The notes beneath the pieces are model-generated. The model searched no databases and was not told where the DNA came from. It saw only the letters and a program-made list of their open reading frames with translations. Positions 1,496-4,342 of a stretch of 40,645 nt of DNA are shown here, one piece after another; the stretch's first letter is position 1; every line of letters starts with the position of its first letter. The DNA comes from Gammaproteobacteria bacterium (GTDB lineage Bacteria > Pseudomonadota > Gammaproteobacteria > Ga0077536). Location: assembly GCA_030429865.1 (NCBI GenBank), contig JAUIFX010000018.1, forward strand, positions 1 through 40,645, read 5' to 3'. The position numbers and the translations under genes were made by a program.

Positions 1496-2509
1496 TCAGG
1501 CGCGGCGCGCCAGCGTGAGCAGACGGCTATAACTGGCCAGGGCGCGGCCGGGCTGTGGCGGGCAGGCGTTGAGCAGCAGCAGGTCGTCCAGCAGGCCGTC
1601 GTAGGCGGCGAGCCGCGCGCGGCATTCGGCGGGCGTTCCGGCGACGGTCAACGCGTCCACGCAGGCATCGGGGATGGCGGCGCAGGCGGCCTCGAGTTCG
1701 CCTTTCGGCGCGAGTTCGAGCAGGGCGTCGGCAACCGCGCCGAAACCCTGCTCGCGCATGGTGTACTCGTAGTACGGGTGCGGCAGCGGAGCGTAGAGGT
1801 GGCACAAGGCTTCGCGCGCCCAGCGCCGCGCCTGTTCGCGGTCGTCGTCGACCGCGGTGATGGCGACCGCGCACCAGGCGAGGGCGTCGGCGTCGCGGCC
1901 GGCGGCGCGGGCCGCGTGCGCGGCGTGCGGGCGCAGTACGTCGCGCAGGTAGGCCGGCGACAGCGTCGCGCCGCCGGCGATACCGTCGGCGACCGCTGCC
2001 GCGACGCCGAGCATGCGCGGAAAGACCGCCGCCAGGTAGACCGGGAACGGGCGGTCGCCCGGGTCCACGCTCGGCGCCCAGTCCATGCGGTGGATGCGTC
2101 CGCCAAAGCTGAGCTGTTCGCCGAGGCGCGTGCGCGCCATGCGCTGCAGCAGCGTCACGTACTCGCGCATCTTGCTCAGCACGCGGGCGTGCTCGATGCC
2201 CTGCCAGGTCTCGTTGATGATGCGGTTGCCGCCACCGACGCCGAGCAGCAGGCGCCCGCCGCTGAAGTCGTTGAAGTCGATGGCCGACATGCCGGCCAGC
2301 AGCGGGCTGCGGCCGTAGGCGTTGAGCACGTAGGGCGCGAGGCGCACGCGCTCGGTGGCCGCCGCCATCGCCGTCAACGGCACCCAGCCGCTGCGCCAGG
2401 CTTCGGCCACGGCGAGTAGCGACATGCCGGCCGCTTCGGCGGCCTGCGCGATGCGCGTCAGGTCGCCGACCGTCATGCCGCCACCGGTGAAGATGATGCC
2501 GAGCTTCAC
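1496..2509 (-). CDS. LLM class flavin-dependent oxidoreductase (LLM-1)
   Basis: The 337-residue protein is a luciferase-like monooxygenase (PF00296) TIM-barrel enzyme. Visible features are the N-terminal beta strand M-K-L-G-I-I-F, the A-A-x-x-A-G region, and the central G-G-R-L-L-L-G-V-G-G-G segment (residues ~95-107) that lines the FMN/F420 pocket. Members use FMN or F420 with NAD(P)H to oxidise or reduce small organic substrates; the substrate and the cofactor choice cannot be told from sequence. The start is GTG 2509, with ggggaga 7-8 nt upstream; the longer frame reaching 3076 is read through the opposite-strand selenoprotein gene and is not real. The gene is divergent from the UGSC unit with a 91-nt shared promoter region. 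Confidence 0.87.
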   Translation of the reverse strand: MKLGIIFTGGGMTVGDLTRIAQAAEAAGMSLLAVAEAWRSGWVPLTAMAAATERVRLAPYVLNAYGRSPLLAGMSAIDFNDFSGGRLLLGVGGGNRIINETWQGIEHARVLSKMREYVTLLQRMARTRLGEQLSFGGRIHRMDWAPSVDPGDRPFPVYLAAVFPRMLGVAAAVADGIAGGATLSPAYLRDVLRPHAAHAARAAGRDADALAWCAVAITAVDDDREQARRWAREALCHLYAPLPHPYYEYTMREQGFGAVADALLELAPKGELEAACAAIPDACVDALTVAGTPAECRARLAAYDGLLDDLLLLNACPPQPGRALASYSRLLTLARRA

Positions 2510-2600: not shown

Positions 2601-3260
2601 ATGTCCGAACTCGAGATTCTCGTGCCCGTACCGGCCACGCGCACACCGGCGCATCCGCTCGCGCCCCGGCTCGCCGCGCTCGGCGGGCGCCGCATCGGCT
2701 GGCTCGACAACCGCAAGGCGAACGCTGCCGCCCTCCTCGGTGGTGTTGCCGATAGCCTCGCCGCCGAGGGCCACGCGTTCGCGCGCGAGCTGGCGCAGAA
2801 GAACGCGACCGCGCCCGCACCGGAGGGCGTGATGGCGCACCTGCGCACCTGTGACGCGGTGGTGCTGGCGATCGCCGACTGAGGCTCCTGTACGTCGTGG
2901 AGTGTCCATGACGCGATTGCCCTCGAGCGCGCCGGCATCCCGACCGCGCTGTTGTGCAGTGACGAGTTCGGCCCGCTCGCGCGTGCCGAGGCGCAGGTGC
3001 TCGGTCTCGCCGCGCTGCCGCTCGTGGCGGTGCCGCACCCGCTGGCCGGTAACGACGCCGGCCTGGTCGCGGCCAAGGCGCGCGGTATCGCGGCCGAGGT
3101 GGCGTTCGCGCTGTGTGCTCGCCCTGCCGAGCTGGAAGCACGCTACACCGGCCAGTTCGCTGCCCTGACCGAGCGCCGGCTCGAGGGCGGCGCGGTGTGC
3201 GTCGACGACGTCTGTGCCATCGACCCGGCGGTGGGCGCGGTGCGGGGGCCGGTGTCTTGA
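2601..3260 (+). CDS. UGSC family selenoprotein (in-frame TGA read as selenocysteine, Sec94)
   Basis: The frame starts at ATG 2601, preceded by ggggagagg at a normal distance, and meets TGA at 2880-2882. It continues in the same frame with G-S-C-T-S-W to a real stop at 3258-3260. Read as selenocysteine the product has 219 residues with U94-G95-S96-C97, the hallmark of the UGSC (seleno)protein family. Both sides of the TGA are coherent protein: residues 84-93 run into D-U-G-S-C and then H-D-A-I-A-L-E-R-A-G-I-P. A SECIS-like hairpin lies at 2893-2913. The U-x-x-C followed by an E-x-A-G-I-P segment resembles, from memory, the selenocysteine region of glycine/proline reductase B subunits; that relation is inference. 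Two further cysteines (V-C-V-D-D-V-C) lie near the C-terminus. Reaction and substrate are unknown; a redox or reductive cleavage role is likely. The next gene overlaps the stop codon. Confidence 0.9.
2880..2882 (+). other. Selenocysteine codon (TGA) of the UGSC protein
   Basis: TGA at codon 94 interrupts an otherwise continuous frame and sits exactly where the family motif U/C-G-S-C requires Sec or Cys. It is followed by ggc tcc tgt (G-S-C). Recoding needs SelA, SelB, SelC tRNA and SelD, none of which is encoded in this window. Confidence 0.88.
2893..2913 (+). promoter_or_regulatory. Bacterial SECIS-like stem-loop for Sec94
   Basis: Positions 2893-2901 pair with 2905-2913 (nine pairs, one of them G-U), closing a three-base loop g-t-g at 2902-2904. 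The loop begins 19 nt after the TGA. Established bSECIS rules ask for a stem-loop within the coding region with a G in the first two bases of the apical loop, about 16-37 nt from the UGA; both hold here. SelB would bind this element to deliver Sec-tRNA. Confidence 0.75.
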
Positions 3261-4342
3261 GTACGACGATGCGCGTCGATGCGGCGGCGCTCGACGACGA
3301 GTTCGAGGCGCGCGGTTGGAGCGACGGTCTGCCGGTCGTCGCGCCGACGCGCGCGCGCGTCGATGCCATGCTGGCCTGCTGCGACCGGCCGCGCGACGCC
3401 GAACTCGGCACCATGCCGCCGCGCCACGGCATCGTGACCCCGGAGATCCTGGCGGTCAACGCCGTCATGGCGGGCTGCCGGCCGGCCTATTTCCCCGTCG
3501 TACTGGCGGCGGTGGAAGCGATGCTCGACCCCGCGTTCAATCTCTTCGCCGTGCAGGCGACGACACACCCCTGCGCGCCCTGCGTCATCGTCAACGGCCC
3601 GATTGCCGCCGAGCTCGGCATCAACGGCCGCTACGGCGCGTTCGGCCCCGGGGTGCGCGCGAATGCCACCATCGGGCGCGCGGTGCGCCTGGTCCTGCTC
3701 AACGTCGGCGGTGCCGCGCCCGGCATCCTCGACCGCTCGACGCAGGGCCAGCCGGCCAAGTACGCCTACTGCGTCGCCGAGAACGAGGCCGAGAGCCCGT
3801 GGCCGCCCCTGCACGTCGCACGCGGCTTCGACGCCGCGACCTCGACCGTCACGGTGACCGCGGCCGAGGGGCCGCACAACATCAACGACCACGTGAGCAC
3901 CGACGCGCACGGTATCCTCGCCACGCTGCGCGGCGCGCTGACCGACATGGGCGCGAACAACGCCTACCTCTACGGTCAGCCGACGATTGCCTTCGGTCCC
4001 GAGCACGCCGCCATCCTCGCCGCCGGCGGCTACGATCGTGCCGCACTCGGCCGTTTCGTGTTCGAGCACGTCCGCCTGCCGCGCGAGCTGTGGGCGCAGG
4101 GCGGCATGGCCGGGATGTTCGAGGATCGCTTCCCGGACGCCGAGTGGAAGCCGATCATCGCGTGCCCGCAAGACCTGCTGGTCATCGTCGTCGGTGGCTT
4201 CGGGCGGCATTCCTGCTGGCTGCCGACTTTCGGTGACACCACGCGCGCCGTGACCCGCGCCATCGCCCGTGCCGACGGCACGCCGCTGGCGAGCGTCGCC
4301 GAGCTGGCCGGGAGGGGCGCACGGCCGCCGTCCACCAGCTGA
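3257..4342 (+). CDS. UGSC-associated protein of unknown function with CxxC motif
   Basis: This 361-residue protein is translationally coupled to the selenoprotein: TTG 3257 overlaps the TGA at 3258-3260, and a ggggg tract lies 9 nt upstream. An alternative ATG at 3269 has no suitable ribosome site. The N-terminus carries a G-W-S-D-G-L-P-V-V-A-P-T-R segment (residues 20-32), a pattern I associate with proteins encoded next to UGSC selenoproteins. Residues 104-109 are H-P-C-A-P-C, a C-x-x-C that could exchange electrons with the Sec/Cys pair of its neighbour. A Cys pair also occurs at 41-42. No signal peptide or membrane segment is visible. I infer a two-subunit cytoplasmic enzyme with the UGSC protein; the reaction is not known to me. 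Confidence 0.8.
   Translation: MSTTMRVDAAALDDEFEARGWSDGLPVVAPTRARVDAMLACCDRPRDAELGTMPPRHGIVTPEILAVNAVMAGCRPAYFPVVLAAVEAMLDPAFNLFAVQATTHPCAPCVIVNGPIAAELGINGRYGAFGPGVRANATIGRAVRLVLLNVGGAAPGILDRSTQGQPAKYAYCVAENEAESPWPPLHVARGFDAATSTVTVTAAEGPHNINDHVSTDAHGILATLRGALTDMGANNAYLYGQPTIAFGPEHAAILAAGGYDRAALGRFVFEHVRLPRELWAQGGMAGMFEDRFPDAEWKPIIACPQDLLVIVVGGFGRHSCWLPTFGDTTRAVTRAIARADGTPLASVAELAGRGARPPSTS

What the first reader, a model, noticed from the sequence alone, without database searches (positions are those of the whole stretch)
2601..4342. Two-gene selenoenzyme unit: UGSC protein plus a coupled CxxC partner
The second gene starts at TTG overlapping the selenoprotein stop and encodes a 361-residue protein with H-P-C-A-P-C. 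Stop-start overlap and possible thiol partner chemistry suggest one enzyme with two subunits. The UGSC motif context (U-x-x-C then E-x-A-G-I-P) resembles the Sec region of glycine/proline reductase B subunits, hinting at reductive cleavage of a C-N or C-X bond.
Basis: inference. Interest (0 to 1): 0.8.

Follow-up and report, generated by a model that had tools for sequence, protein, structure and literature searches.

The report
Two-part selenium enzyme, partner unnamed
Two neighbouring genes, one using the rare selenium amino acid and one from an unnamed family, are found side by side in distant bacteria and archaea and look like the two halves of one reducing enzyme that is related in its selenium site to a proline-degrading enzyme.

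Summary
Window 2601-3260 encodes a UGSC-family selenoprotein (PF24696, E 7e-48 across the in-frame TGA), and 3257-4342 encodes a 361-aa protein that overlaps it by TTGA and matches no Pfam or NCBIfam family. The UGSC family is known but functionally unassigned; the partner is annotated only as hypothetical protein. The pair holds together tightly: UGSC and partner occur in the same 6 of 369 genomes of the class sample and the same 5 of 398 of the phylum sample; all 68 UGSC hits examined have a partner within 270 nt on the same strand; both are often one fused ORF; their divergence is correlated (r 0.88). The CxxC idea fails: HPCAPC is confined to the window's close relatives. Thioredoxin-reductase-like genes lie beside the pair in 12 of 69 loci, and three partners carry a thioredoxin-like domain. 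Best reading: a two-subunit, thioredoxin-fed selenoreductase in which the partner binds an organic acid and the UGSC selenolate attacks it. Substrate and reaction are unproven.

The parts
2601..3260 (+). UGSC-family selenoprotein gene, 219 aa with TGA read as Sec (stop TGA 3258-3260)
   Evidence: PF24696 E 7.2e-48 across the TGA; NF041046; translation
2880..2882 (+). in-frame TGA read as selenocysteine (Sec94); C97 is the presumed resolving cysteine
   Evidence: 50 U, 16 C, 2 M at this column in 68 UGSC hits; C97 column C in 66 of 68; Sec machinery in the genome
2894..2912 (+). SECIS-like hairpin, 8 bp with a 3-base loop starting with G, 11 bases after the Sec codon
   Evidence: 89.2% of cells paired against 19-47% when slid; one pair changes G-C to C-G in 6 of 30 distinct rows; the window fold z -2.5. 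The stretch also encodes a conserved peptide, so this is supporting, not decisive
3257..3260 (+). TTGA overlap of the UGSC stop and the partner start
   Evidence: sequence
3257..4342 (+). partner subunit gene, 361 aa, TTG start; no Pfam or NCBIfam match
   Evidence: present next to UGSC in all 68 UGSC hits examined
3566..3583 (+). H-P-C-A-P-C of the partner, a feature of the window's close relatives only
   Evidence: 12 of 79 partner hits

Best explanation
The two genes encode the two subunits of one selenium-dependent reductase. Shown here: they are a tightly linked, often fused pair, and the Sec site is homologous to that of PrdB/GrdB. Inferred: the partner holds a carboxylate-bearing substrate (its invariant or near-invariant polar residues are D23, T31, N136, R141 and E175, with no conserved thiol); the Sec94 selenolate of UGSC attacks the substrate and displaces or reduces a group on it; C97 of the UxxC motif then resolves the selenium adduct to a selenenylsulfide; and the thioredoxin / thioredoxin-reductase system regenerates the selenolate. 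So it works like D-proline or glycine reductase at the selenium, but with a different substrate subunit. The three copies in this genome, and at least eleven in one relative, would be paralogues for different substrates.
For: Co-occurrence in the same 6 of 369 and the same 5 of 398 genomes. 68 of 68 UGSC hits have a partner within 270 nt on the same strand. 18 single-ORF fusions, 11 of them from one genome (L035 dropped). Correlated divergence r 0.88 against a permutation maximum of 0.20, 64 of 67 pairs kept. Sec module homologous to PrdB: hhalign E 8.3e-6 with Sec on Sec, and 19 of 29 rows match the GrdB model. Electron supply: TrxB-like genes in 12 of 69 loci, 7 of them within 500 nt on the same strand; trxB-trxA-partner-UGSC in Arthrobacter; partner-UGSC-trxB in Roseovarius; a thioredoxin-like domain fused to the partner in three loci, one in this very genome. 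Sec use: 50 of 68 UGSC hits carry TGA. Two fused copies in G332 lie beside selB and selA. Anion-uptake genes (TRAP, TAXI or TTT binding proteins) near 7 of 14 annotated plasmid loci.
Against: No substrate or activity is known. No thioredoxin gene lies near the window's own pair, and no operon partner beyond the two genes was seen. The UGSC similarity to PrdB covers about 75 residues around the Sec motif, not the whole protein. Two fusions (Sporomusa, Vibrio) have Met in place of Sec and Ser in place of C97, so some members cannot use this chemistry. One plasmid (Haladaptatus) has a partner and no UGSC anywhere on the record.
Confidence: 0.6

Rival explanations
1. UGSC plus partner is a thiol-disulfide or peroxide-type oxidoreductase (antioxidant), not a catabolic substrate reductase; Sec serves ordinary redox exchange with thioredoxin.
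For: UxxC motif, thioredoxin neighbours; the GOS paper grouped UGSC with proteins likely to have a Trx-like fold (passages).
Against: The predicted UGSC domain is a flavodoxin- or Rossmann-like alpha/beta fold in the matches seen, the closest Sec-site relatives found are PrdB/GrdB, and the neighbourhoods look catabolic (CoA transferases, TRAP/TTT uptake, PQQ dehydrogenases).
Confidence: 0.2
2. The partner contributes a redox-active dithiol (C106-A-P-C109).
For: The motif is real in the window and in 12 of 79 partner hits.
Against: The two cysteines are not both present in the other 67 hits, including the two paralogues in the same genome (THCIAP and TTWFSGP).
Confidence: 0.05
3. The unit is a lyase, isomerase or hydrolase in which the selenol is a nucleophile or base and no net reduction takes place.
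For: The Met/Ser variants in Sporomusa and Vibrio sit near aconitase X genes; the best Foldseek rows of the partner are class I fumarate hydratases (E 9e-4), though VIA Z is at most 5.5.
Against: Thioredoxin and thioredoxin-reductase linkage and a conserved resolving cysteine in 66 of 68 point to reduction.
Confidence: 0.13
4. The TGA is an ordinary stop and 2601-2882 and the following frame are not one protein.
For: Nothing beyond the stop codon itself.
Against: Profile match across the TGA, Cys at the same column in 16 relatives, selA, selB, selD and tRNA-Sec in the genome, conserved hairpin.
Confidence: 0.02

Closest known systems
UGSC family (seleno)protein, PF24696 / NF041046
   Same: The window protein passes both curated cut-offs. 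The family has been in print as UGSC-containing protein since at least 2008 (PMC2398784, passages seen).
   Different: Listed in print without an assigned function in the passages seen (PMC2398784, PMC9312934, PMC13188914); what is added here is the partner subunit, the thioredoxin link and the PrdB relationship.
UGSC/Unknown_1 fusion of the GOS selenoproteome (PMC2398784, Figure S1A)
   Same: A UGSC protein fused to a conserved domain of unknown function; probably our partner.
   Different: Only the legend and text passages could be seen, not the alignment, so identity with our partner is not tested. [quoted passage not shown]
D-proline reductase PrdB (with PrdA)
   Same: Small Sec subunit of similar size; Sec motif and the following E-x-A-G-I-P-T align; second, larger subunit encoded nearby.
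   Different: Below the curated PrdB/GrdB cut-offs; partner not similar to PrdA and without a conserved cysteine that could become a pyruvoyl group.
Glycine reductase protein B (GrdB) and the fluoroacetate reductase FarB/FarE
   Same: 19 of 29 UGSC rows give weak matches to TIGR01917 at the Sec region. The far operon shows that GrdB-type pairs can be turned to other substrates, down to a C-F bond (PMC10838667, abstract and passages).
   Different: Window protein is about half the length of the model; 22.1 bits against a cut-off of 602; no GrdA or GrdC was looked for.

Membership tests
UGSC family (PF24696 / NF041046) | score above curated cut-off | tested here: met
   163.4 against 25 bits; 128 against 125 bits
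UGSC family (PF24696 / NF041046) | U/C-G-S-C motif with Sec encoded by TGA | tested here: met
   genome holds selA, selB, selD, tRNA-Sec
GrdB/PrdB selenoprotein B | score above curated cut-off of TIGR01917, TIGR01918 or PF07355 | tested here: not met
   22.1 against 602.2 and 17.3 against 65.45 bits; no PF07355 match at E 1
GrdB/PrdB selenoprotein B | homologous Sec module | tested here: met
   hhalign A1 against the PrdB-type alignment A10, prob 83.5, E 8.3e-6, Sec on Sec; partner against PrdB and UGSC against PrdA give prob under 1
D-proline reductase complex | second subunit homologous to the PrdA proprotein | tested here: not met
   hhalign A2 against two PrdA sequences, prob 0.1; only two PrdA sequences were at hand
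D-proline / glycine reductase complex | cysteine of the second subunit that becomes a pyruvoyl group | tested here: not met
   no fully conserved Cys in 79 partner hits; C74 is C in 58 of 74 and A in 14
Glycine reductase complex | GrdA and GrdC/GrdD components | not tested
   not searched in this genome
Thioredoxin-fold selenoproteins | Trx fold of the UGSC domain | tested here: inconclusive
   matches listed are flavodoxin-like, periplasmic-binding-protein and receiver folds, VIA Z about 9-10; absence from a list does not exclude a fold
Class I fumarate hydratase (partner) | conserved Cys ligands of the iron-sulphur cluster (ligands recalled, from no call) | tested here: not met
   no conserved cysteines in the partner; fold match weak: Foldseek E 9e-4, VIA Z at most 5.5

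The most novel reading that the evidence does not exclude
UGSC plus partner is a third class of PrdB/GrdB-type selenium reductase, beside glycine/betaine/sarcosine reductase and D-proline reductase. It is found well outside the strict anaerobes, in proteobacteria, actinobacteria and, with Cys, haloarchaea. Its substrate subunit is a new, cofactor-free family instead of a pyruvoyl proprotein, and it has radiated into many substrate-specific copies (three here, at least eleven in one relative) that reductively cleave C-X bonds of imported organic acids.
Probability: 0.35. Interest if true: 0.85.

Novelty: new variant of a known kind. Interest (0 to 1): 0.62.

Why it matters
UGSC proteins were among the most abundant selenoprotein families of the GOS survey and the most used one in its non-marine samples (PMC2398784, passages), yet no function was given in the papers seen. 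Showing that UGSC did not stand alone in our samples, but came with a second subunit, explains why the selenoprotein by itself is hard to interpret. It gives a concrete complex to purify and a reductant system to assay it with, and it ties the family to the PrdB/GrdB chemistry of selenium-carbon bonds.

Tried and rejected
CxxC partner chemistry: rejected. Partner as PrdA/GrdE: no similarity to PrdA; GrdE itself was not at hand. Partner fold: no confident relative; class I fumarate hydratase and chorismate-mutase/YjgF-like rows are weak. PDB sequence searches with the UGSC and partner profiles: nothing at E under 0.05. Relatives of the partner in viral contigs: none of 46 pattern matches confirmed. 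PF07355 in 274 genomes of the class sample: 5 with short or weak matches; those rows, except L078 and through it the PrdB-type records, were not pursued. Rfam: no match in the window at gathering scores and only a chance-level row near the Sec codon; bacterial SECIS elements may not be covered there. Pooled Pfam counts of neighbours: no family next to most pairs (114 families for 135 proteins, 144 for 102); seven long distant ORFs were left out of the first pool and three of the second to fit the residue limit. First MAFFT alignment of fragments to the fusion (A4) misaligned UGSC rows to the partner and was not used. Literature: searches found no paper that names a partner of UGSC beyond the GOS Unknown_1 fusion; supplementary files could not be opened.

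Limits of the counts: loci are not independent. Loci were fetched with the partner as bait, so for them only partner-to-UGSC adjacency is informative; UGSC-to-partner comes. In one search only up to 5 candidates per genome were scored. The TrxB profile was built from 5 of the 12 loci it then found (L049, L052, L053, L061, L089); the other 7 did not enter it. L061 scores 264 bits for TIGR01292, below its cut-off of 343, so TrxB-like is the right word. Masked residues of L035 were read as Ala in the scripts, and L035 was dropped from the fusion count.

Full report
What is there. Window 2601-3260 is an ORF of 219 residues if the in-frame TGA at 2880-2882 is read as selenocysteine. PF24696 matches residues 5-171 with E 7.2e-48, on both sides of the TGA, and NF041046 just passes its cut-off. 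The next gene starts at TTG 3257, shares TTGA with the UGSC stop, and encodes 361 residues without any Pfam or NCBIfam match at E 1. In 11 of 17 relatives inspected the same stop-start overlap is kept. Substitutions against relatives fall mostly at third codon positions in both genes. The genome, a 4.6-Mb assembly of 291 contigs, carries selD, tRNA-Sec, selB and selA within about 6.5 kb of contig C237. A hairpin of eight pairs with a three-base loop starts 11 bases after the TGA; over 30 distinct rows 89.2% of cells pair, against 19-47% when slid, and one pair changes G-C to C-G in six rows. As this stretch also encodes a conserved peptide, the hairpin is support rather than proof.

The pair is a unit. 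The same genome has two more UGSC genes, both with TGA, each beside a partner paralogue. With PF24696, 6 of 369 genomes of the class sample and 5 of 398 of the phylum sample are positive; with the partner profile the same 6 and the same 5 are positive, and no others. The window genome is in both samples. Over all 69 loci that hold a hit, 68 UGSC hits and 79 partner hits were found; every UGSC hit has a partner on the same strand within 270 nt between profile edges, 56 with UGSC first and 12 with the partner first. Three loci have a partner and no UGSC: L027 and L047, where the contig ends in the partner, and L086 (Haladaptatus), where the whole 816-kb plasmid has none. After leaving out L035, 18 places are single-ORF fusions, 11 of them in G332. 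Identity matrices of the two proteins correlate at r 0.88 over 64 non-redundant of 67 pairs, with a maximum of 0.20 in 2,000 permutations; common descent of whole loci contributes to this. Some loci have partner-UGSC-partner or two partners per UGSC (L055, L072, L085, L090, and Conexibacter L039 with two of each), which suggests a heteromeric enzyme.

The Sec module is PrdB-like, the partner is not PrdA-like. Each of 29 UGSC rows was scanned against NCBIfam: 19 give a match at E 1 or better to the GrdB model, 15 to the broader selenoprotein B model and 9 to PrdB, best E 3.7e-6. hhalign of the UGSC alignment against these five gives prob 83.5, E 8.3e-6 over 75 columns, with Sec on Sec and the following E-x-A-G-I-P-T aligned. 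Controls, partner against PrdB and UGSC against PrdA, give prob below 1, as does partner against PrdA.

The CxxC motif is not the point of the partner. C-A-P-C occurs in 12 of 79 partner hits, all from the window's near relatives; its two paralogues in the same genome have THCIAP and TTWFSGP. The best conserved cysteine, C74, is Ala in 14 of 74. Nothing in the partner can therefore be a family-wide dithiol or a cysteine-derived pyruvoyl group. Invariant or near-invariant polar residues are D23 (73 of 73), T31 (74 of 74), N136 (73 of 74), R141 (74 of 74) and E175 (74 of 75) (window numbering), which would suit an acidic substrate; that is inference.

Structures. The natural fusion of locus L037 was predicted with 46 rows, mean pLDDT 82.6 and pTM 0.85; the window partner alone gave 85.6 and 0.89. 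The UGSC domain resembles flavodoxin-like and Rossmann-like alpha/beta proteins at VIA Z 9-10, a common arrangement. The GOS paper called a Trx-like fold likely; our model does not show one among the matches listed. The partner has no confident match: Foldseek's best rows are class I fumarate hydratases at E 9e-4, with VIA Z at most 5.5.

Who feeds it. Thioredoxin-reductase-like genes lie in 12 of 69 loci, 7 of them within 500 nt and on the same strand (L052, L053, L061, L069, L072, L089, L091). Annotated examples are trxB-trxA-partner-UGSC in Arthrobacter and partner-UGSC-trxB in Roseovarius. In three loci, one of them contig C126 of the window genome, the partner has an extra N-terminal domain with CxxC; a profile of the three finds thioredoxins in the PDB (best E 1.4e-5, 94 chain sequences at E 1 or better, 60 shown), although single-sequence Pfam matches are below cut-off. 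The 14 annotated plasmid loci have TRAP, TAXI or TTT binding proteins nearby in 7, CoA transferases in 6 and LLM flavin monooxygenases in 3 (flanks of 7 or 9 kb). The window's own pair has an LLM monooxygenase divergently upstream and no thioredoxin gene beside it.

Sec, Cys and neither. At the Sec column 68 UGSC hits have 50 U, 16 C and 2 M; the C97 column is C in 66 and S in the two M cases. The Cys forms include the haloarchaeal plasmids. The M/S forms are fusions in Sporomusa termitida and Vibrio europaeus near aconitase X genes, a branch that must work differently.

How it most likely works. By analogy with D-proline and glycine reductase, in which a selenolate is thought to make and break a selenium-carbon bond with a dithiol as reductant (PMC10298544, passages; GrdB and PrdB roles in PMC13188914, passages), the partner would present the substrate, Sec94 would attack it, C97 would release the product, and thioredoxin would reset the Se-S bond. 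The fluoroacetate reductase operon suggests that a GrdB-type pair can be recruited for a C-F bond (PMC10838667, abstract and passages). Steps shown: linkage, Sec site homology, thioredoxin association. Steps inferred: complex, substrate class, chemistry.

Known and new. The UGSC family, its Sec and a fusion with an Unknown_1 domain are in print (PMC2398784). In the searches made no paper defines the partner, its linkage, or the PrdB relationship; subscription papers and supplements were outside reach.

Noticed in passing
L056-L065 (genome G332, class relative): At least eleven UGSC-partner fusions in one 3.5-Mb genome, all with TGA, several with U-S-[ST]-C instead of U-G-S-C; PQQ dehydrogenases and FAD oxidoreductases among the neighbours.
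   Followed up: partly
L060 4656-9999: selB and selA flank a UGSC-partner fusion, with a second fusion next door, so the Sec machinery and its client genes share a locus in this genome.
   Followed up: partly
L050 8308-10032 and L054 8344-10029: Fusions in Sporomusa termitida and Vibrio europaeus with Met for Sec and Ser for the resolving Cys, near aconitase X and DUF126 genes.
   Followed up: partly
L086 6977-7984: Haladaptatus halobius plasmid with a partner gene but no UGSC on the whole record.
   Followed up: partly
L055, L072, L085, L090, L039: Loci with two partner genes per UGSC, or two of each, which suggests heteromeric versions.
   Followed up: no
window 1499-2509 (-): Luciferase-like (LLM) monooxygenase divergent from the pair; an ORF that reads like an LLM (by eye, not scanned) also lies directly upstream of the C33 paralogue, and annotated LLM genes lie near three haloarchaeal pairs.
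   Followed up: partly
L025 and L027: Contigs labelled Klebsiella pneumoniae MAG carry partners 80-83% identical to the window's; the label looks wrong.
   Followed up: no
L074 (genome G627): UGSC hit split into two frames, either a frameshift or an assembly error; the Sec column reads Cys.
   Followed up: no
L051 (Acidovorax sp. T1, IncP conjugative plasmid): A Sec-type UGSC-partner fusion on a conjugative plasmid with IS1071 nearby, so the unit looks mobile even in its Sec form.
   Followed up: no
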